From Strigops habroptila (lineage: Eukaryota > Chordata > Aves > Psittaciformes > Psittacidae): 64,000 nt of DNA. A program made the position numbers and the translations under genes. Below, piece after piece: positions 3,001 to 56,177 of the stretch. Every line of letters starts with the position of its first letter. Position 1 is the first letter of the stretch. The notes under the pieces are model-generated. The model searched no databases and was not told the DNA's origin. It saw only the letters and a list, made by a program, of their open reading frames with translations. The stretch spans positions 5,817,719 through 5,881,718 of the forward strand of contig NC_044288.2 of NCBI RefSeq assembly GCF_004027225.2, read 5' to 3'.

Positions 3001-6000
3001 CAAAGCACATCAGTCCTACAGCTTGGTCAAGGTCAGAGGCAGGAAACACGAAGCACTGGTGAGGAGCTCTAACTAATGTTGCTGGCAAATCTCTATCTTG
3101 AAATTAGAATTTCCTCGAGTCACAAATCCACTAGAATCCACAAATTTTAAGTCACGGACTCCCTGAACACTGCTCAGGTAAAACTAAGAACCCCTCTTCT
3201 GCCTTTCCAGAAGAAAAGTTGTATGATCAGGCTGCTATTCTCATCTATGGCATATCTGCTGGAAAACAACTCTGTGAGCATTAACAAGAGCGCATAAACC
3301 CCATTTATCTGAACAAGGGAGGAGCAAACCTTCAGCTGAGGACACAGGGACTTCCCACCTACCTCTTACATGATGGACGATAGTCACTATATGCTGAGCA
3401 AACAGTTCAGAAGGGCTCCTCTGAGACTGAGCAGACTGAATATGATGGAAAATGGAACGGAATTCCTGCTCCTTTTTGTTGCTGTGCACCAGGTCACGAC
3501 ACAGCTTGCGTTCCTGAGCCAATATGCCACTTGGACTAGAAAAAGAACAGACCACATGAAATACAAGAACAGGGGGAAGGGAAGCACAGTTTAAGGTGAT
3601 TAATGTTTCCCAAGTTGGAAGCTGACTGCGTTATTTTATGTTGTCTTATGAAGACACCTCAGAAGACTCAATAGCACGAGCAGGACACATTTAAACATCT
3701 CTAAAACACACTGATCTGGGTTACTGGGATAATTTAGGTCACTTGTTATTCTGTATTGAGTGCAGGTATTAAACGCTGACATCCTGGGAAACACTTCCGA
3801 AATGTTAGATTTACCTCTAACATCCCAGTGTGTAACACTGGCTACTGCTGTACAGTTTATTTGCTGAAATAACTTTTTCCTGTCTTAAGATTTCTTCAAG
3901 CAACGCTGAAGCGTCTCTCAGAGTTTCAGTACTACTATGGTGAGAATAAGAGTAGTTAAACACACCTCAGAGAATCAACTGTCAGTGAAGCAGCACTGTA
4001 ACTTTACTGTACCACTAAGCTTCTAGCAGCAAGAAGCCACTGAGTAACTAACTCTTACCTGAACCCGATGCAGAAGCATTGACACTCTGAAACAATCTTA
4101 CACCGAGTTGTAGAAGACGTTAGGAAAAGTTCTTTAACCCTCATGCTATACTTTCACCATCTGCAAACTGGTAACCCCTCTAACCTCCCACCACGGGAGA
4201 AAAAGGGTCACACAAGTATTATAATGCCAGAAAAAAATTCATCTCTATCTCCAAAACATGCAAATGGTGACGCAATATTATTCGGCCTTCCTCACACTTG
4301 GCAAGTCTAGGAGGATCTCAGGAAGAGAAACAGGAAAACACCACAACTTGGACTTCCACTTACCGTGCAAGATCTTCATCGAAGGAATCCATTCGGATAT
4401 TGACCTGGGCCTCACGTGTAATAGAAAAGGAGGATTTGCCAGGAGTTAGCCCTTCTACTTTGGTGCCTGGTTTCTCCTTCACCTCAGAAGTCTTCCTTGG
4501 TGGGGGGGAAGAACTTTTCTCCTGGCTTGATTTGTAAGTGGTCACTCTGAAATTCTTCTCAGGAACAAAGCCCCTGTGACCTGGTTCAGCTCTCTTGGAT
4601 GCTGGTCTCTCCTCTTTCTTTGATCGTTCTGAATAGCTTTCCTCCTCCATTTCCTCAGGTTTCCTTTGCTTCTCTTTTCCGGGTGGCAAGAACACCACGC
4701 CTTCCCATTTTCCTGGTCTCTCCTCCTCTTGACTTTTACTTGAAGTTGCTACAACTTTAGACATAAATTTGGGCTCTTCCTCAAATTCCGAATCTTTTCG
4801 GCCCTTTGCCTTGTCTTTCTTTTCCTGGTCATCTGTTTCCTCTTTGCCATAATGGCCTTCCTTGTGGAACTCCGGGGCCTTGAGCTTGTCAAATTCATCC
4901 CGGAACTTGTAGCGCTTGGGCGACTGGCTGCCGCGGTATCCCTTCTCCGAGTCCGCTTTGGAGGCATAGGACTCGGATTTTGCCTTTCCATCTGCTGATC
5001 CCACCTCCGAGAAATTCCCTTTCTCTTTACTTTTCTCTTTTTCAACATTTGTTACTTTCTGTTCTTTGTCTTTCCCATTCTCAGTCTTCTGCTCTTCCAG
5101 ATACCTGGTCACAGAACAGACATTACAGTAGTTCTCTTATTACAAAAAAAAACAAAGAGGTTCATTCTTCAGTTGAAAACAGGCAAATTTTAGAGAACAC
5201 CAAGCTATGCATGGACAGAAAGCTGTGTCTAGGCCCTAAAATACTTAAAAGGTAAAGCAGATTTACTCAGCCTGGATTTAGACTTCTAGTTCTCAACAAA
5301 TTCAGCAAATGTAGAAGACAATGGATATGCAGAACTGGTGAGATGAGGCTTAAGAACAAATAAAAACCAGCTTACCCACAGATTCATTTGAAGGAAAATA
5401 GTAACATCTTACCCAATCGCTTTATTTACTTACAAACCTGCTTCAGGAGAACAACACATCAAAACTTTCAAACTGGGCTGTTCTGCTTTAAACAACACAC
5501 TGGAAATAAAAGCCTCAAAAGCTACTTCAAATTTTGGATGCAAGTTTCATGGGTAAGCTAAATATTTCCTGACAGACTGTAAATACAAATAAAAGCAAAA
5601 AGGTTAACAGAGGAGAATATTGATTCTGCTGGGAGAAGACAAAACACTTGTAGTGAGAACAACAGTTTAAAGCATCAGAACTGTGGTTTAAAGCATTCAT
5701 GAGGAAACAGCAGTAAAGGCCTCACACATTAGTTCAGTGCTTTGGAAAGCCCAAACACGAGTTACGGCTTCCCCCCCTCCCCTTTCTTTTTAAGTTTCAG
5801 ACATCCTTGATATAGAATCAGTTCAAAATAACTTTGAGAATAAGAAAAGATTTAACAGCACTTGTGAATGTTACCTTGTTAATGAATCTTTTAAAGCAAA
5901 GTGTCACACATGAACCTGCAGTGGGCTAACCAGGCAAACCACCATGGGAAGCTTCCCTATGGAAGGATGTCTTAGATTTAGGAATGAGCTTAGTGCTTTA

Positions 6001-9000
6001 GTTTCTCATACTACCCACAACCACAGGCACAAGCACTGCAACTAAACCTGCCTTAGCTTGCTTTGCAGCAGGGCATGCAGTAAGATTTCATTACATTTAT
6101 CTAATTTATAGCATCTAATGCAATTCAAGAATGCAATACTATAAAATGACTTTAAGTGGAAAGTAACACAGAAATGCAAGCTTCCCGTGGGCACTGTTAG
6201 GTTGCCAGAAAACCTCATCCAGCACATCTTCACTTCAAGTGTTCCCAAGCTATGAACACTTCAGCAACTATCCAGGACAGAAAACTAACTCCAGCTTCCC
6301 ACAACACAGGGCAAGGTCTGTGTTTCATTCTGCAATTCAGACAATACCAGGTCATAAGAGCTGGCACCCTGCTGGGATGGCACCCTGCTGGGATGGCACC
6401 CTGCACACCCTGGGGGCTCGTTCCAGCTGGAGCCTGCACAGTGAGAACCCTTGCAGGGCTCCTGGAGTGTGTCTACACAAAACCACCGCAGCACAACGAA
6501 CACATCACTTGCCTTTTGGAGAAGGCTCCTCCTCCAGGAGCTGTGGTTTCCTCCTTCTGAGATGTACTGTAAATGGAACTCACTGGTGTTGGACTTTTAC
6601 ACACAGGGCTCTTCCTGGTCGGGCTCAAACCTGCCGAGCCGTGGTCAAAGGGACTCTGATGAGAACCTGCCTGAAAGGAGGTGCCGCTGCTGCTGCTGCT
6701 TTGTAAAGCAGAGCTCATCTGGGATGGGTTGGAGAGTGGAGGGCTCGACTTTTGCAATGGACTTGGCCGAGGAGAACGACGCCTCACCACAACCGACTGG
6801 AGAGGGCTTTTTAGTGCAGGACTGCGTTCCCTCGGGCTAAGCTCAGACACAGAAGCTCTTGAGGTTGAACTTGTACCATAGGTGCTCATCTCCTGCCACG
6901 GTTTTGATCCCTCAGACGCCTTGACATCTTGAGCCACTGCTCCTGAAAACGGCTGCTCCTTAGACTCATCACCTTGGTTATCTCCTGCAGGCTGAGATGC
7001 CCGGTTATCCTTGGAAGAGGACTTCTTCTCCTTTCCAGATTTCCGCTTAGAAGACTCCACTCGGCTGTGATTCGAGGAGGAGCGGGAGGAGGAAGACCTC
7101 CTCGACCGATCAGAAGATGACTTATCGGAATTCCTAGAATGACTTCTAGACCTGGGCGAAGGAGACCTTCTCTTGGGGGAACGAGAGCGCGACCTCCCTC
7201 TACGCGGGCTGTACGCTTGGCGGTAGTTTTGCCAGTTTGACCTGTAATTGCCATATCCTCCTCGGTTGTACTGGCCCCAGGGATAAAACCCTCGATTTCG
7301 GCCTCGAAAATAATATGGTCTCCTGTAGCCTCTGTTATGCCCTCGGAAATCCCGGTTTTGATAGACTCTCGGATGGTTCCTTTCCCTGTTGTGAGATGGA
7401 GAATACGATCGGGAACGGGACCTAGAACTGAGGAAAAGAAAAAAAAAAAATCACACAAATGTTTTAAAGTCACAACTTTTTACCTGAAGTTTTATAGAAA
7501 AGTAGCCGAAAACTGCATTTCTCAAGTTTTATAAGTAATTTCTTTGGTTTACCCTCGTCCAGTTGAGGTATTACACTTTGCCCTCAATAAATTGCAGTGG
7601 AAATAACTAGTATCTGTGATACCACCAAACAAATGTTGGAGTTCAGGATCGCTGCAGAGACCATGATAACTACACGTTGCTTAGTTTTCCTAGGATGAAC
7701 ATGGCTGTTACCCAGCTTCAGAAAAAGAAGTGACATCTTCCAAACTTCCAGCCCTTTACAGCTCAAAGCCATGGTTACACCTCACCATAGAGCTCTCTTG
7801 TTCTTTTCTGTTACTGGAACAGACCCAAGATCATCTTCTTGTGTCCCAAGTTCTCGTGTGCTTTTGAAATTCTGATTATCGAGATGAAATCCCGCTTCTT
7901 TGCCAGGTGAGTTATATGAATTACCACATCTCCACACAGGAGGAGCAGCACCGGGGCAAACGGCACACTGCTCTATAGGTTTAAGGTTCCACAGGTGCAC
8001 CTCTTGCCCCAGTTTGGAAGCTGGAACTCCAAGCGAGTGGGACAGCAGAGGGATGCACCCGTTTCCAGGCTGAGGCCACAAGGTGGCACTGCTCGGTGTC
8101 CCTGTGCTCACCACCACCCCAAACACGAACACTCACAGGGCACAACTGAGCCCAAAACCTGTCAGAATACAGCGAAGGGGCAAAACGCCATCGTTCCAAC
8201 AGTCCCTCCCATGGAAGTTGTGCAGCTGCAGCTGTGTGACTGTTCAAAAGCCGCACTGTAGCTCAGGATTAAATGCCAGCTTTGCAGGATTTCACAGCTG
8301 TTGGAAAAACAAACCTCTGCTCAAAGCCTGAGATTTGAGCAAGTTTGCCTTGGTAAAACAGAGGAGGTGTCCAAGCTAGTACAGTTAAATAGAGAAAGCG
8401 ATTTTTCCAAATGGAATTTGAGTAAATAATGTTCACTGAAACCATTCCCACTTTCCATTTTCACTTCTTGGTCTCCTTGGTCACGCTCCAGCACACATGT
8501 ACTGACTCTTTCAGACTGGCAAAGCACAACTCACTGCTGCCCCCTCTCCGCTCACACCCCAAACCCCCATAACGGGAGGGAACACAACGCTGCTGCTGGA
8601 ATTCCTACCAGACGAGCATAAATACATGCAGAGATGGACTTTAGTTCTGTGTTTATTTCTTCCACCTATCAAATACACATTATAGTTTAGCAGGAAACTG
8701 TCTGTTCCTACTGTAGCCAAACAACTTCTCTGAGACACTTCCTCATTTGAGCAACAATAGGAAGGAAAAGCAGAGAGGCAGATGGGAAAACACAACTGTA
8801 AGGAGCCCCAGTCGAAGGCACTACCACCAAACATGCTCCTGTTTTCAGACAACTGCTGCATTTGTGATCAATTACCAGCAAGGGACCTGTTGAACACAGC
8901 TTCCAAAATCTGCTCCATCGTTTTAGAGAGGCTGCAGCAGGGAGATTTCACCCTGCCAGCCCCAGCTGATACACACGGCTCCAGTTACGAAGCACCCACA

Positions 9001-28893: not shown

Positions 28894-43120
<14,227 letters not shown>

Positions 43121-43350
43121 GGCGTGGCGGGGAGGCGCAGAGGGCTGGCCGAGCCGTGCCGAGCCGCGCCGCGCCGCCCCGCTCCCCCCGACCCGGCGGG
43201 GGAGGACGCTCAGCGCTCCCCGCCCCGGCCCCGGCCGCGCATCCCGCCCGGCCCCGCGGCCCCGGGCTGGGGGGAGCGGGCGGGCAGAGGATGCTCTGCC
43301 TCTCCCCTACGCAAAACACGGCCCCAATCCGGCCCTCAGCCACCCTCCCG

Positions 43351-46300
43351 CAGCCAGGGCTGGGACCCCCCCCTCGTCACCCCAGCCTCAGGCCTGCCCC
43401 CAGCATCCCCCCCGCTTTTCTCAGGCACTCTCCCATCTCCAACCCCTCCTCTCCCAAATGTTGGGGCTTGCACCCACGCTTCCCGCCCCCCCCCACATTT
43501 CACGATGCTCCCTCCAGTCACCTGCAAAGCGCTGGCCCTGCAGCAGACACCCCCTGTACCCCCTGCATCCCCGACCACTGCCAGCACCACGATGCACAGC
43601 CACTGCCACTCGGATCACCCCGATTTCCAGGCACCCCAAAGAAGCATTGATTCCCCATCCCCGATCCCCACCTTGGCTGCTTGTGAGGCCTCGAAGCTTC
43701 TTCCCCCACCACCCACCCGCCACACGTGAGCTTTAGTCACCGCCAGCAGCCGCCCCCTGCTCCCAGGGCGAGGGTTTCACCCCACACATCCCACCCTGCC
43801 TCGATAACAGGCTGATAACGAGAGGCCTCCCGGGACAGGAGCAGAGGGCTTGGCTCAGCCCCGCTCCGGGGTGAAACTCCTCTTGGCCTTGCAAGAAGAG
43901 GAGCACGGCACCAATCCCTGCCCCTGCAGCATCCTGGAGCAAATGCACCCCGGGCACGGGGGCTGCCCGCTGCAGCAGCACGTCCAAGGGCAAGGGACAC
44001 ATGGGTGGCAGCAGCAGGAACAGCCATGGGAAACACCACTTCGGGCTTTGCAGGGGCAGCAGGAGCCAAGGACATGTCCCCATTCACCGTGCAGCCAGCC
44101 TGGTCCAGGCATCCCACAAAGTGCCCATCTCTGGGTTCATGGGAACGTGTTGATGAACAGGCTCAGTTTTCTGCAGGCAGCGCCCATCAGGAATGCCTGT
44201 TTTGGGGATGATGTCACCGCAGGGCCAGGAGATCCCCTGCCACCCATCCTCCCTCGCCTACCAGGCAAACAGGTTTCCTGAAATCCCAGCCCTCTTCTCC
44301 GGAAGCGCGTTGCTCTGACTCAGGGGATGGGGAGCGGGCAGGAGGGCTCCTCGGCAGATGGGGCGGCCGTCTGCAGGGGTGACCCTACACCCCAAACACC
44401 CCAAACACCCCAGAGGCCCAAGCCGTGGCCGAGCCGTCACCTTCCTGCAGCCCCCGGCCCTGCCGGCTGCTCACCCGGCTCAGCCAAAGCAGAGGCTTCC
44501 CAAAAACTCCCAGTGGCCTCACCCACCGGCTGACTCCCAGCCAGGGAATGCTGCACGGCTGAGCCACCATGACTATGGGAGCTGTGCAGCCCCGGGGATG
44601 GCGGGGGACAGGAGCGCACGTGGCACAGGAGTGTGTCCCAGTGGACTCACAAACACAGGGGACACAGGGAAGGGGAACAGCCCTGCTCATGTGCCTGTGT
44701 GGCTGAGCCTCCAAGTGGGCTGCGGGACCCCTACGGCTCCTTATTTCCATGGCACATATGGGACTGGGCAGAGCAGAACTGGGGACAAGGGTGTTGGTAG
44801 GTGGCTTCGAAAGCCTTTTGCCATGGCCCTGTGGGTCCCAGCGGGGTGGGCAGGGGGTCTGGCGCAGCATCACCCAAAATGGACAAGCCTTCTGAGGCTC
44901 CGGGGCAGCTTGGCATCAGGTCCAGCCATGCCTATGGTCCTTCTTCCCATGACAGGGCCAGCCTGGAGCAGGGGGCACGGTGAGGAAGGGGCACCCATGG
45001 GTGTACAGGGCCCGCGGCTGTGCTCTGCCAATGCTCCCGGTGCGGGCAGTGATGCGGATGGCTCCTGGCTGCCAATGCCAGCCCAAGTCAATGGGCTTAT
45101 ACAACACTGATCGATCGCTCTGCTGCACACCCTGCTGCATCGGGGTTCCTGGGGCCAGCCCCCCCGGCCCTGCAGTGCTGGGAACAGCCGCCCTCCCAGC
45201 ACTGATGGAAAATCCGATGAGCTCATGACGAGCACATTGCCCGGCCCCAGCAGCTGCATGCCCGGAGCTCCCCGTGCTCCTCAGCCCCCCGGCGTGGGGT
45301 GTAACACTGCCACAGCTCCATCAGGCTGGCCTGTGGAGGGGGATGCACACAGGGGGCAAGGGACCAGCCATGGCTCTAGCCCCACAGCATGCTCATAGCC
45401 TTGACTTGATGCTGCTTACAGGGAGCCAACGGGGTGCCAAGCACCCCAAAATCAAAGGACAATTACAGTTATGGCTTGGCCAGTGTGAGCAGACGCTGCG
45501 GGAGGCCGGGTGCAAACAGGGATGAGGATGGCAAACAAACCCCACTGGCATCACCGGGCAAAGTACTGCGTGGACACCCCAATCCCACCCACTCCCCACA
45601 CCTCTGCCCCCACCCTGCTGCTGTGTGGGGTGGTTTTGGGACCCACGCAGGACAGTGGTACCATGGCCACAAGGGCTGATGTGAACTCCAGCAGACCCCC
45701 ACTAGCCATGGGGCAGTGGCGCAGCAGGAACCCAGGGGTGATGCTCTGTCCCTGCATCCTGCCCTGGAGCAGACTGGTGCGGTACCAGCCTGTCCCTGGC
45801 AGTGTGCTGGGGCAGCCACCAGCCCGGAGCATCTTGCCACGGGGCCAGCATTGCAGCCAGCCACAAAGCCCCAGTGCTGCAGGACAATCCCCTGCGGGTG
45901 CAGGTGACAAATGGGCCAGCGATGGGCTGAGCCCTGCCCTGCCTTGCCACAGCCTTTGCCAGCTCTGTAATTATCCCGGGCTGCAACTGTAATTAGTGTC
46001 CTGATGTCATGGTATCAGGCCTGGGCAGTCCCACCAGCTCCCCGCCAGCCCCACCTTGGCCTCTGGCCCCAGGCTTGAAGGAGATCCCAGCCCTCCAAAA
46101 CCATCCCAAGGAGCTCCAGCCCGGCTCCGGCTACCAGTGCTCCCCGCCAGCATTGCTGCTGGACCCCCATCCCATCCCTGTCCCGCAGCACTGGAGGGCT
46201 GGATCTGGCCCTGTGGGAGCTCCCACTGCTGCATCTCTGCTCCCTGCCTGCTGCCAGCGTCCTGCCTGCTCCTCCTGGGGACAGATCCTGCCTGGGGTCA

Positions 46301-46639: not shown

Positions 46640-47067
46640 ATGATCAGGGGCTGGAGCACCTCCTGTATGAATCCAGGCTGAGAACATTGGGGCTGTTCAG
46701 CCTGGAGAAGAGAAGCTGTGTGGAGACCTCAGAGCAGCTTCCAGTGTCTGAAGGGGGCTACAAGGATGCTGGAGAGGAACCTTCATCAGGGACTGGAGCG
46801 ATAGGACAAGGGGCGATGGGTTCAAACTGAAACAGGGAAATTCAGGTTAGACATAAGGAAGAAGTTCTTTACTGTGTGGGTGCTGAGGCGCTGGGACAGG
46901 GTGCTCAGAGAAGTGGTGAATGCTCCATCCCTGGCAGTGCTCAAGGCCAGGGTGGACAGAGCCTTGGGTGATATAGTCTAGTGTGAGGTGTCCCTGCCCA
47001 TGGCAGGGGATTGGACCTGGATGATCTTAAGGTCCTTTCCAACGCAAACCATTCCATGGTTCTATGG
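46640..47067 (+). mobile_element. CR1 retroposon, 5'-truncated, next to the GH3 stop codon
   Basis: About 430 bp of CR1 3' region, plus orientation, from GATCAGGGGCTGGAGCACC to a terminal TCCATGGTTCTATGG. It starts at nearly the same CR1 position as the copy at 30162-30593 but differs at many sites, so the two are separate insertions. Its 3' end is 12 bp from the stop codon of the GH3 gene, so the GH3 3' UTR should consist of antisense CR1. Confidence 0.95.
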
Positions 47068-47079
47068 CTGTCCCCACCT

Positions 47080-50000
47080 CTAGCACCCGCTCAGGGGCCG
47101 GGCTGCGCCGGTGACGGTGAACCGCGCGCTCAGCACCTCCGAGGGCACCCGCGTCTGCTGCTCCGGCTGCTGCCCACCAGCAAAGAGGGTGAAGGTGCCG
47201 GGCTCGAGGCGCCAGCCCTGCGCCCAGACAGCGCGCTGCTCCGCCAGCACCCGCAAGGACAGCTTGGTGTCCCGGCCCGCCGGCACGGCCACGCGCTGGA
47301 AAGCCACCAGCTGCCAGCGCGGCACGGGCACGGATGGCTGCTCCCACCGCAGGTACAGCTGCACCACCTAACCGGAGCGATGGAGTCAGCGCCAACGAGA
47401 CCCCCTACATCCGTACCCCCCAGAGCCGCGTCTGTGCGGAGCGGCTGTGCTCACCTCCTCGCCATCCCGCTGCCCTGTGTTCTCAAGCACCACAGACACG
47501 GAGAGGTTGGCGCAGATGGGCAGCACTGGAGGGATCAGCACCAGGTCCCGGTAGCGGAACGTGGTGTAGGACAACCCGTAACCAAAGGGGTAAAGAGGGG
47601 GCTCCTGCCCGTAGTACCGGTACGTCCATCCCTCCATGGTGTAGTTCTCCATCGGTGGCACCTGCGGGACGTGGGGATGGTGGAGCAGGACACGGTCAAG
47701 CATCAGCCCTTCATCCCATGGTCCCCCAGCCACCAGCGACAGGGAAGGGCTATGGGTGCTGCCCTGGCCTTACCTGGTGCATGCCCGCGGGCCACGTGGC
47801 CGGCAGCCTGGCAGCCGGGCTGGCCCCGGCCTCCCCCAGCAGCACCCTGGTGATGGCGAGGCCGGTGGCCTGGGCAGGGAAGAAGCACGCCAGGATGGCC
47901 CCCACACCCTCGTGTGCCTGTGCCCAGCTCACGTCCAGGGGCCCCGCGTTGAACAGCAGCAGGATGACAGGGCGCCCAGCGGCTGCAGGGAGATGGTTGT
48001 CACCAAAAGCCCCACATGAGTGCTACTTGCATGGATCTGGGGTGCCCCATGGATGGGGAGGTTGTGGTCCCCCTCCCTGCACCACATCCCATCACCACCC
48101 GCCAGTCCCCCGTCACCAAGCAGAGCCCCACTGAGCCCCTACCTGCCTGCACAGCATCCTGCAGCAGCTCCAGCTGGTGCCCTGGCAGGGACAGGTCACT
48201 CCGGTCCCTTCCCTCTGTCTCCACATCCGTCCCTGTGTGAGGACAGCCAAGGGACAGCCCCTTACACCCACCCGGGGCACTGCGGATGGGCAGGGCAGAG
48301 GGGCACTGCCTTGGGGGTCCCTGCTCCCACCTACCTGTCCCCAGGCAGACCACCACCACATCGGCTGCCCCTACGGCACCCACCACCTCTGCCTGTGAGT
48401 AGCGCCGGCACCGCGGCTCGAGGCAGCCCGCCGCAAAGCTGACATTAACCGGCAGCGTCTCCAGCCCCCTCCTGTGCCAGGGAAGAGCACAGGATGGTGG
48501 CACCTTGGGGACACCCCCCTTGCCCCGTCCCCCAGTGCAGGGTTGAGCAGCTCCGGCAGCAGTGCCCAGGACCGGAGGATGCTTGGCAGCACCGCGCTGT
48601 CTCACCGCGGAGTGTAGATGTACTGTGGCTCTGGCACCGGCGCATAGTCCCCGAACAGCACCTGGGGGTTGTCGGCGAAGGGCCCCACAACCTGCGGAAG
48701 GCAGAGGGGTGAGGGTGGGCACTGGCAGCCCGTGCAGCCCTCCATACCTGCGTGCCTGGGGTATGGAGCCGGCAGCCCCATGGTCACCATGTCCCCCTGC
48801 CCACCTCTGTGCTCAGTGCTCACCGCGAGGCGCTTGCCGGGCAGGTCCTGGGCCCGGAGGGGCAGCGTCCCCCGTGAGTTCTTCAGCAGCACAAAGCTCT
48901 TGACAGCAGCTTCCAGCGAGAGGTTTCGGTGCTCAGGGCTCTGCACGACGCTCAGGTTCAGGGTGCTGTAGGGGTTCATGGCCGGCGGGTCGAACTCCCC
49001 CAGCCGCATCCGGGTGTAAAAGAGGGGCCGGACCCGGTCACGCAGCATCTGCGAAGACCCCGACACCAAAACCATGGTTGTGCTCAGTGGGGACGGCCCT
49101 GGCTCCTTTGCCCCCAGCCCCGCTCCCCCCAGCTCACCTGCAGCGTGATGTTACCCATGGCCAGAGCCTGAGGGATGTGCATGAAGACGTTGTTCCTCAC
49201 ACCATAGGACAGCTCCAGGTTGCAGCCGGCGTTCACTGATGCTGCCGTGCCAGTGAGAAGGGAAACCACCCGTCACGGCTGCGCGGTGTCCAGGGACCCT
49301 GTGCCCGCCCCGGGAGCTCACCGACTGCCGTCTCCAGGAAGGTGCGTGTGTAGTGGTGCCCCAGCATGATGAGCTCCAGAGCCCCCGCGTCGCTCACCAC
49401 GTAGCCGTCGAAGCCCCACTCACCGCGCAGGATGTCCGTCAGCAGCTTCTTGTTGGCGCAGGCAGGAACGCCGTTGATCCTGTTGGAGATGGGATGTGGC
49501 AGCACGGACAGCCAGGCACCACCACCCCTTGGGCTGTGCAGCCTCCACCATTTGTACCTGTTGTAGCTGCACATGAAGCTGTAGGAGCCGGCACGCGCAC
49601 ACGCCTGGAACTGGGGCAGGAAGGTGGTGCGCAAGTCCCGCTCCAGCACCTGCAAGCGCCACGGTGGAGAGGGGTCAGTGCCAGGGGGAGCCGCTCACCA
49701 CCCCATGGCTCCACTGCCCTCACCTTGGCATCGAAGCTGAGCCTGGAGACGGGGATGTTCTCGGGGCCCCCGTGCACACTGAAGTGCTTGCAGCCAGCGC
49801 TGGCCTTGATGTAACGGGGGTGCGGGCCCTGCAGCCCCTGCACGAAGCTGCGGGCCAGCTCCCCGCTCAGGAACGGGTCCTCCCCATAGGTCTCCTGGAT
49901 GAGGTGCAGACAGGTCATGGTCAGGACGCCCAGCCCCACACCCCGCCACCAGCACCCCGGGGAGCTGCTGTCACCCTCTGGCTGGACAGACATGGTCCAG

Positions 50001-50685
50001 CGTGGCCTGATCCCTGGGGTCCCCCCACCCTGCCATGCTGGCACCTGGTTCCTGCCCCACAGCGGGTGCCTCATGATGTTCAGGACGGGGCTGAAGCAGC
50101 TGAGCCCTGTGTGGTCACTGTAGCGGCCGGCGGCAGCGAAGGCATTGTGCTTGGCTCTCACCTCGGTGGCCGTGGCATTGGCCACCCGGTAGATGAGCTC
50201 AGGGCTGCAGGGAGAGCACGGGGGCACCTCATGGGGCCATGTCCCAGTGTGGATCTCCGGGTGCCCCATCCCACGGGGGTCCCGGTGCCCCGATGCCGGC
50301 ACCTGAAGGCAGCAGCGAGTCCCAGCGCCTGGGGGAAGGCCGTGGCCCATCCGGGTGCCTCCACATCGCCCCGCAGACACTCAGTGTTCCAGTTGTAGGG
50401 CGCGATGCCCAGCCTTGGGATGGGGGGCGCAGGGCCGTTCCCCAGCGCACCCCCCCTCGCTACCTGCAGCACCAGCTCGCTGGGGCTCAGCCGGCCCAGG
50501 AGGTCGTCGAGGCGGCGGTGCCAGGGCAGCGCCGGGTCCTGGAAGGGAAAGGGGAATGGGGAAGGCTCCGCTCGGCCCGGCCCGGCGCACAGCACTGCGC
50601 ACAGCACTGCGCACAGCAGCACGGCGCCGGCCCGGAGCCCCGCCACAGCCGCTGCCGGGGCCGGCGCTGCGGCTCGGCGCGCCAT
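47080..50685 (-). CDS. Secreted glycoside hydrolase family 3, beta-D-xylosidase-like
   Basis: Exons in transcript order: 50685-50303, 50204-50045, 49894-49724, 49649-49558, 49479-49322, 49241-49138, 49048-48824, 48691-48606, 48471-48335, 48232-48143, 47982-47774, 47661-47455, 47367-47080. They sum to 2310 nt, 769 codons plus stop, phases agreeing. Residues 1 to about 38 are a signal peptide. The barrel domain (about 45-360) has WNTECLRGDVEAPG, ETYGEDPFLSG, AGCKHFSVHGGPEN, FMCSYNRINGVPACANKKLL and GEWGFDGYVVSDAGALELI. The aspartate of VVSD (about D299) fits the GH3 nucleophile. The second domain has LLKNSRGTLPL, GPFADN and GTDVETEGRDRSDLSLPG, the usual acid/base region. YYGQEPPLYPFGYGLSYTTF opens the fibronectin-III-like C-terminal domain. 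Several N-glycosylation sequons and no KDEL suggest secretion or lysosomal delivery. The layout and motifs match plant/fungal beta-xylosidases; substrate unproven. The 5' end of exon 49241-49138 could instead lie 6 nt downstream. Confidence 0.93.
50585..50622 (-). repeat. 12-bp tandem repeat coding the signal-peptide core
   Basis: GCGCACAGCACT is repeated about three times. In the GH3 gene it encodes the run AVLCAVLCAVLCA, the hydrophobic core of the signal peptide. Copy-number change would lengthen or shorten that core by four residues without a frameshift. Confidence 0.85.

Positions 50686-52768: not shown

Positions 52769-56177
<3,409 letters not shown>

What the first reader, a model, noticed from the sequence alone, without database searches (positions are those of the whole stretch)
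47080..50685. Plant/fungal-type GH3 beta-xylosidase-like gene in a vertebrate, between MAP7D1 and TRAPPC3
Thirteen exons join in frame to a full-length secreted GH3 enzyme with signal peptide, the VSD nucleophile motif, the acid/base-region motif and a fibronectin-III-like tail. GH3 is typical of bacteria, fungi and plants, and I recall no GH3 gene in mammals. Its place inside a conserved mammalian gene neighbourhood suggests an old vertebrate gene lost in mammals rather than recent transfer: intact introns and host-like GC content fit this. What such an enzyme cleaves in a bird (dietary plant xylan, O-xylose on glycosaminoglycan linkers, or something else) is open.
Basis: partly seen in the sequence, partly recalled or inferred. 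Interest (0 to 1): 0.75.

Follow-up and report, generated by a model that had tools for sequence, protein, structure and literature searches.

The report
Bird GH3 beta-xylosidase-like enzyme gene
A bird chromosome carries an intact gene for a sugar-cutting enzyme best known from plants, fungi and bacteria; it is an old animal gene shared with reptiles, amphibians, lungfish and many marine invertebrates, seemingly lost in mammals, and its job in animals is unknown.

Summary
The gene is not new to databases: orthologs (62-91% identity) are listed in birds, turtles, squamates, alligator, amphibians and lungfish, and relatives (43-60%) in amphioxus, hemichordates, echinoderms, molluscs and a nemertean, often named 'probable beta-D-xylosidase'. 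No named mammal or ray-finned fish stands in the visible best 120 of either animal search, which fits an old animal gene lost in mammals. 'Plant/fungal-type' is not supported: animals form one clade (100/100) apart from plants and fungi. Catalytic Asp299 and Glu512 and most xylose-contacting residues are kept, including the Glu typical of GH3 xylosidases. But the tryptophan that packs against C5 of xylose in fungal enzymes is never Trp in 116 readable animal rows (Asn/Asp in 106), and the Cys after the nucleophile is mostly Glu/Gln. Best reading: a secretory-pathway, retaining exo-beta-glycosidase, xylosidase-like with an opened C5/C6 pocket. Snakes and a hawk keep it, which speaks against plant-fibre digestion as its only role. 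Substrate and tissue are untested. This bird has two odd substitutions (E300A, R617W).

The parts
50303..50685 (-). GH3 gene exon 1 (residues 1-128): start codon, signal-peptide-like region, WNTECLRG motif (N100, E102)
50045..50204 (-). GH3 gene exon 2 (128-181), GRNQ motif (R179)
49724..49894 (-). GH3 gene exon 3 (182-238), CKHF motif (K217, H218)
49558..49649 (-). GH3 gene exon 4 (239-269), MCSYN motif (M264, C265, Y267)
49322..49479 (-). GH3 gene exon 5 (269-322), C276 and VVSD with the predicted nucleophile D299; the one PF00933 match in the assembly (49362-49496) overlaps it
49138..49241 (-). GH3 gene exon 6 (322-356)
48824..49048 (-). GH3 gene exon 7 (357-431)
48606..48691 (-). GH3 gene exon 8 (432-460), Y447
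48335..48471 (-). GH3 gene exon 9 (460-506)
48143..48232 (-). GH3 gene exon 10 (506-536), predicted acid/base E512
47774..47982 (-). GH3 gene exon 11 (536-605); the one PF01915 match in the assembly (47765-47986) overlaps it
47455..47661 (-). GH3 gene exon 12 (606-674); carries the unusual W617 and the PFGYG motif
47080..47367 (-). GH3 gene exon 13 (675-769 and stop): Fn3-like tail, conserved last Cys769
28987..36516 (-). MAP7D1 pieces found by tblastn (neighbour, downstream on the same strand); its first exons were not located
52769..56174 (+). TRAPPC3, five exon pieces (neighbour, divergent)
4360..7450 (-). THRAP3, two exon pieces (further neighbour)

Best explanation
This is a vertically inherited animal GH3 gene, one copy found in this genome. 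It encodes an enzyme that enters the secretory pathway and works as a retaining exo-beta-glycosidase: D299 attacks the anomeric carbon, E512 acts as acid/base, and a pocket holds the non-reducing-end sugar. The donor is most likely beta-D-xylose, with relaxed selectivity at C5/C6 because the tryptophan that fills that place in fungal xylosidases (and is Trp in plants) is Asn/Asp here, so beta-glucosides or another C6-bearing sugar may also be cut. In vertebrates I think it most likely clears small beta-xylosides in lysosomes or secretions, from the body's own glycans (such as xylose left on serine after proteoglycan breakdown) and from food. Shown: gene structure, domains, conserved catalytic residues, predicted fold of an ortholog, distribution in the visible lists, gene order. 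Inferred: activity, sugar preference, location, substrate.
For: Gene and domains. Closest solved structures by sequence are xylan 1,4-beta-xylosidases (7vc7, 5.6e-89); the predicted model of the Buteo ortholog (91% identical; pLDDT 86.2, pTM 0.89) ranks PcBxl3 first (TM 0.82 by query length), then TrXyl3A and T. maritima beta-xylosidase. The best NCBIfam profile is xylan 1,4-beta-xylosidase Xyl3A in all 5 proteins scanned (4 animals, 1 plant), each below its cut-off. Residues matched to PcBxl3 by the alignments, roles from PMC8913315 (sections 6 and 11 read): D299, E512, R179, K217, H218, E102, Y447, M264 and C265/C276 are kept in nearly all readable animal rows. The Glu at the E102 place marks GH3 xylosidases against Asp in glucosidases (PMC6987092, passages). 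Constraint: the window differs from Buteo at 69 of 765 residues, but at 271 columns that are at least 90% conserved in non-bird animals it departs at 3, one of them in the signal region. Distribution. Four unnamed contigs of 2.5-2.6 kb that hold a whole frame without introns, nearest to caecilian, lungfish, frog and salamander orthologs, look like spliced transcripts. Four snake rows (P0032, P0037, P0038, P0076), a hawk (P0001) and Alligator (P0051) keep all the pocket residues checked.
Against: No activity, expression or localisation data for an animal member came up in the 10 paper searches. The C5 tryptophan is absent in all 116 readable animal rows, and the Cys after the nucleophile is Glu/Gln in 112 of 119, so xylose preference is uncertain; the fifth-ranked structure is a beta-glucosidase (EmGH1), at nearly the same score. 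The window itself has A300 and W617 where the 16 bird rows have E and R, so this species' enzyme may differ or the assembly may carry base errors. No bird transcript was identified. The proposed endogenous substrate rests on reasoning from diet and from human GBA data only.
Confidence: 0.7

Rival explanations
1. A digestive enzyme for plant xylan or other plant beta-xylosides in the gut.
For: Closest characterised relatives are xylan 1,4-beta-xylosidases. Several rows share one contig length in marine invertebrates (eight Haliotis asinina rows; four Glandiceps and three Saccoglossus rows), as expected of an expanded digestive gene, though some rows may be isoforms.
Against: It is kept with its pocket residues in four snake rows, a hawk and Alligator, animals that by general knowledge eat little or no plant matter; one copy is found here. 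Whether this bird has an endoxylanase of its own was asked (GH10) and never answered.
Confidence: 0.2
2. The true donor sugar is not xylose but a C6-bearing sugar (beta-glucoside, beta-glucuronide or beta-galactoside), the animal clade having changed specificity when the C5 tryptophan was replaced by Asn/Asp.
For: PMC8913315 (section 11) states that GH3 glucosidases lack this Trp and so have room for C6; animals lack it in 116 of 116 readable rows while plants have it in 119 of 119 and fungi in 3 of 3.
Against: Glu102, the xylosidase-type residue, is kept in 116 of 116 readable rows. T. maritima beta-xylosidase has His at this place as I read the printed alignment and is still a xylosidase; four of seven bacterial relatives (activity unknown) have Gly or Gln there, so the Trp is not needed for every xylosidase.
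Confidence: 0.25
3. In this bird the gene is losing its function: A300 next to the nucleophile and W617 in a motif that is Arg from plants to animals mark a weakened enzyme (or are base errors of the assembly).
For:: W617 against R in 16 of 16 bird rows, 117 of 117 readable plant rows and 96 of 103 readable non-bird animal rows; A300 against E in 16 of 16 bird rows.
Against: No stop, frameshift or broken splice site; the other conserved columns hold; A at the place of residue 300 also occurs in P0098, P0100 and P0102.
Confidence: 0.12
4. Recent horizontal transfer or contamination from a plant, fungus or bacterium.
For: GH3 xylosidase-like proteins are best known outside animals.
Against: Thirteen exons with host-like GC, conserved neighbours here and in Alligator, animals monophyletic with 100/100.
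Confidence: 0.01

Closest known systems
GH3 xylan 1,4-beta-xylosidase PcBxl3 of Phanerochaete chrysosporium (PDB 7VC6/7VC7) and TrXyl3A of Trichoderma reesei (5A7M/5AE6)
   Same: Domain order, fold, nucleophile, acid/base, Arg, Lys, His and Glu that hold O2-O4, alpha-face Tyr, Met and the two Cys
   Different: C5 tryptophan replaced by Asn/Asp; Cys after the nucleophile replaced by Glu/Gln (Ala here); 28-30% identity in the structural alignments
Plant beta-D-xylosidase (BXL) family, e.g. Arabidopsis BXL1
   Same: Length, three domains, catalytic residues, Glu at O4; the vertebrate record names 'probable beta-D-xylosidase' look borrowed from it
   Different: 35-36% identity of 8 plant rows to the Buteo ortholog; plants have Trp at the C5 place and Cys after the nucleophile in 119 of 119 readable rows each; separate clade
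Bacterial GH3 beta-xylosidases and xylosidase/glucosidases (RmXyl3A/B of Rhodothermus marinus, PMC6987092; Thermotoga maritima 7ZB3)
   Same: Glu at the O4 place; the T. maritima enzyme also lacks the Trp
   Different: Prokaryotic; different residue after the nucleophile (Tyr in T. maritima)
Vertebrate database entries 'probable beta-D-xylosidase 2/5/7' (e.g. Lepidothrix, Anolis, Xenopus)
   Same: They are orthologs of this gene
   Different: Predicted by annotation; I found no paper on their function in the searches made
Human lysosomal glucocerebrosidase GBA (PMC7903134)
   Same: Cleaves beta-xylosides; [quoted passage not shown]
   Different: Another GH family (recalled: GH30); about 50-fold lower activity on 4-MU-xyloside than on the glucoside (passage)

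Membership tests
Glycoside hydrolase family 3 | Glyco_hydro_3 and Glyco_hydro_3_C domains above curated cut-offs | tested here: met
   143.4 bits (cut-off 27) and 143 bits (cut-off 31)
Glycoside hydrolase family 3 | Asp nucleophile and Glu acid/base in the known places | tested here: met
   D299 and E512, matched to Asp267 and Glu470 of PcBxl3; conserved in 119/119 and 116/117 readable animal rows
Glycoside hydrolase family 3 | Measured glycosidase activity with retention | not testable with these tools
   needs a purified protein
GH3 beta-xylosidase group | Glu rather than Asp at the residue that holds O4 (PMC6987092, passages) | tested here: met
   E102; 116/116 readable animal rows
GH3 beta-xylosidase group | Trp packing against C5 (PMC8913315) | tested here: not met
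   N100 in the window; no Trp in 116 readable animal rows, Trp in 119/119 readable plant rows and 3/3 fungi
GH3 beta-xylosidase group | alpha-face Tyr, beta-face disulfide and Met (PMC8913315) | tested here: met
   Y447, M264, C265 and C276 present; that these two Cys form the disulfide is inferred from sequence, not seen
GH3 beta-xylosidase group | Measured release of beta-D-xylose | not testable with these tools
   needs a purified protein
NCBIfam NF041776 xylosidase_Xyl3A equivalog | score above curated cut-off 1250 bits | tested here: not met
   Buteo ortholog 492.9 bits, best of 8 families; the Arabidopsis row also fails (476.9); the window protein itself was not scanned
Plant or fungal GH3 xylosidase lineage | groups inside plants or fungi in a tree | tested here: not met
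   animals one clade, 100/100, on the other side of a 100/100 branch from plants + fungi; 24 animals, 5 plants, 3 fungi, 7 bacteria

The most novel reading that the evidence does not exclude
Land vertebrates other than mammals possess a dedicated beta-xyloside-cleaving enzyme for the turnover of their own glycans, with an active site that animals changed in a set way (Trp to Asn/Asp at C5, Cys to Glu next to the nucleophile) before molluscs and vertebrates parted; mammals lost it and are left with the weak side activity of glucocerebrosidase.
Probability: 0.22. Interest if true: 0.75.

Novelty: new variant of a known kind. Interest (0 to 1): 0.5.

Why it matters
The family is known and the gene already sits, uncharacterised or with a borrowed plant name, in public annotation. 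What I did not find described (10 paper searches: of openly licensed papers only) is an animal GH3 clade with a consistent change in the sugar pocket, kept in carnivores and absent from the visible hits of mammals and ray-finned fishes. If active, it would mean that human and mouse are poor guides to beta-xyloside metabolism in other vertebrates, and that a loss in mammals can be tied to a concrete enzyme. The questions of substrate and of the role of the C5 residue are directly testable with one purified protein.

Tried and rejected
Recent transfer and contamination: rejected (introns, synteny, tree). 'Plant/fungal-type': rejected by the tree. An endo-acting enzyme that releases whole glycosaminoglycan chains: considered and set aside, because the pocket residues that hold O4 of the end sugar are kept, which fits exo-cleavage; this is inference. 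NagZ-like N-acetylglucosaminidase: set aside, the Buteo ortholog scores 37.4 bits against a cut-off of 207, and the Glu acid/base is present. A literature trail for vertebrate GH3: none in the listings. Papers searched for terms only, without finding an animal GH3 xylosidase: PMC9151784, PMC10416458, PMC6887791, PMC10295696 on a land snail (its 'GH3' counts are GH31, GH35 and the like, and the table passage seen lists no GH3) and PMC5111886 on a crustacean. Rfam found nothing in the window at gathering scores. A repeat search next to the stop codon gave nothing of note. GH10 in the own genome was asked six times and GH1 once; the machine was busy each time, so nothing is known.

Limits: only the best 120 of 5322, 7990 and 7837 hits are visible, so a strongly diverged ortholog in fishes, sharks or mammals could be hidden below 885 bits or 1183 bits. 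The seven bacterial rows of the tree were found by words of the query, which biases them towards animals; L008 and L009, which match only part of the protein, were left out. In one search the program warned that long branches meet and that four bird rows, the window among them, and one bacterial row differ in composition; the order inside amphibians (caecilian with frogs, salamander outside) and the grouping of amphioxus with hemichordates and echinoderms are not the usual species order. Two stork rows and other shortened models have gaps at some pocket columns (one search shows P0011 and P0014) and were set aside column by column. Diets are general knowledge, not from a call.
Full report
What is there. 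On the minus strand of the window, 13 exons between 50685 and 47080 join in frame to a 769-residue protein; all 12 introns are GT-AG. Pfam finds the two GH3 domains and the Fn3-like domain above their cut-offs. The N-terminus has a hydrophobic stretch that fits a signal peptide, and the protein has seven N-glycosylation sequons; no signal-peptide program was run.

Surroundings. MAP7D1 lies on the same strand downstream (pieces between 36516 and 28987; MAP7 domain in one of two ORFs scanned), TRAPPC3 on the other strand upstream (52769-56174), THRAP3 beyond MAP7D1 (4360-7450). In Alligator a gene model runs GH3 and MAP7D1 together (P0051; both domain sets), so the neighbour is the same there. 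That MAP7D1 and TRAPPC3 are neighbours in human is recalled, not from a call. In the window's own assembly (1.149 Gb, 89 contigs) the PF00933 search and the PF01915 search each find one place, both in this gene (the search is exon by exon and only two candidates were scored each time).

Relatives. One search lists the best 120 of 5322 hits: birds (P0001-P0015, 79-91% identical, and a partial P0045), turtles, squamates, Alligator, caecilians, salamanders, frogs, lungfish (vertebrate rows down to 62%), then amphioxus, hemichordates, echinoderms, molluscs and a nemertean (43-60%). A second search with a profile of 13 invertebrate rows (best 120 of 7837) adds bivalves and a chiton. Neither list names a mammal, a ray-finned fish, a shark, a coelacanth, a cyclostome, an arthropod, a nematode or a cnidarian. 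The five rows without a name were placed by their nearest named relative (caecilian, lungfish, frog, salamander, mollusc); P0254 and P0274 were not placed. So the gene is at least as old as the split of molluscs and vertebrates, and is apparently missing in mammals and ray-finned fishes. Because lower hits are not shown, a strongly diverged copy cannot be excluded.

Tree. A maximum-likelihood tree of 39 rows (24 animals, 5 plants, 3 fungi, 7 bacteria) holds animals together with 100/100 support and parts {plants + fungi} from {animals + bacteria} with 100/100. It is unrooted and the bacteria were chosen by likeness to the query. It shows that the animal proteins are not a branch of the plant or fungal rows; it does not tell where the animal clade came from. 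Lungfish and tetrapods form one group, with birds, turtle and squamates in the expected order; but the caecilian joins the frogs with the salamander outside, and amphioxus joins hemichordates and echinoderms (83/88), so the tree follows the species only broadly. The program warned of long branches meeting and of unusual composition in four bird rows and one bacterial row.

Constraint and transcripts. The window differs from the Buteo ortholog at 69 of 765 residues, yet at the 271 columns that are at least 90% conserved in the 104 non-bird animal rows (columns with at least 85 readable rows) it departs at three (position 14, in the signal region; A593; W617); an even spread would give about 24. 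Four unnamed contigs of 2.5-2.6 kb carry a complete frame without introns and are 88-90% identical to caecilian, lungfish, frog and salamander orthologs; since the gene has 13 exons in this bird these look like assembled mRNA, which is an inference, as the tool does not explain the source. No bird transcript was identified. One Cygnus row (P0045) departs at 31 of 270 columns, the 12 shown lying at 607 and beyond, which looks like a faulty gene model.

Active site. The paper on PcBxl3 and TrXyl3A (PMC8913315; sections 6 and 11 read, other passages) names the residues of subsite -1. The chain numbering of 7VC7 in the alignment agrees with the paper, so they can be carried over: nucleophile Asp267 is D299, acid/base Glu470 is E512, Arg143 is R179, Lys183 and His184 are K217 and H218, Glu62 is E102, Tyr407 is Y447; for the Met and disulfide beside the ring, which the paper names without numbers in the parts read, I take M264, C265 and C276. 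In animals these are kept: D299 119/119, E512 116/117, R179 118/119, K217 114/114, H218 113/114, E102 116/116, Y447 115/118, M264 119/120, C265 120/120, C276 119/119 of readable rows out of 120. The exception is Trp60 of PcBxl3, which packs against C5 and according to that paper keeps out C6: it is Asn in the window and Asn 97, Asp 9, Ser 5, Ala 2, Ile, Gly, Val one each in 116 readable animal rows, against Trp in 119/119 readable plant rows and 3/3 fungi. Of seven bacterial relatives three have Trp, three Gly and one Gln. The residue after the nucleophile is Cys in plants (119/119), the three fungi and the seven bacteria, but Glu 101, Gln 11, Ala 3, Leu 2, Gly 1, Lys 1 in 119 readable animal rows; the window has Ala.

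What this means. Glu at the O4 place is the mark by which GH3 xylosidases were told from glucosidases in PMC6987092 (passages), where the two Rhodothermus enzymes with that Glu had both xylosidase and glucosidase activity. T. maritima beta-xylosidase, among the nearest structures to the model, has His at the Trp place as I read the printed alignment. So loss of the Trp does not exclude a xylosidase, but makes a wider donor range likely. The predicted structure of the Buteo ortholog (pLDDT 86.2, pTM 0.89) ranks GH3 xylosidases first, with a beta-glucosidase (EmGH1) fifth at nearly the same score. NCBIfam's best profile for it is Xyl3A xylan 1,4-beta-xylosidase, below the cut-off. I therefore commit to a retaining exo-beta-glycosidase, xylosidase-like with an opened C5/C6 pocket.

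Role. Four snake rows, a hawk and Alligator keep the gene with every pocket residue checked, which by general knowledge of their diets speaks against plant fibre as the only reason to keep it. Marine invertebrates often list several rows from contigs of one length (eight for Haliotis asinina, four for Glandiceps and three for Saccoglossus), which fits local copies and perhaps a digestive use there. For vertebrates I favour clearance of small beta-xylosides, from their own glycans and from food. [quoted passage not shown] All of this is inference; nothing here tests a substrate.

Novelty. The gene is in public databases under names such as 'probable beta-D-xylosidase 2', so its existence is not new. 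In 10 paper searches the listings showed no paper on a vertebrate or animal GH3 clade; two animal genome papers that the listings suggested were searched for terms and gave none. The library holds only openly licensed papers. The consistent change of the sugar pocket in animals is what sets it apart from the characterised enzymes.

Noticed in passing
residues 244, 300, 593 and 617 of the window's GH3 protein (exons 4, 5, 11, 12): Four residues are unlike all 16 other bird rows (W244L, E300A, G593A, R617W); Arg617 is Arg in all 117 readable plant rows too. Weakening in this species or base errors.
   Followed up: partly
P0051 (Alligator mississippiensis): A public gene model fuses the GH3 protein with MAP7D1 (1346 residues); probably a read-through or annotation error, but it shows the shared gene order.
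   Followed up: yes
P0045 (Cygnus olor): The public model departs from conserved columns from residue 607 on, likely a faulty model.
   Followed up: no
   Followed up: no
window 46650-47060 and about 30400-30620: Two stretches that read like CR1 retrotransposon tails (recalled likeness, not searched), one just beyond the GH3 stop codon, one in a MAP7D1 intron.
   Followed up: no
window 42001-44000: GC peak of 0.737, perhaps the MAP7D1 promoter or first exon region.
   Followed up: no
L001 and L007: Two planctomycete contigs under different names carry almost the same GH3 protein, with Gly at the C5 tryptophan place.
   Followed up: no
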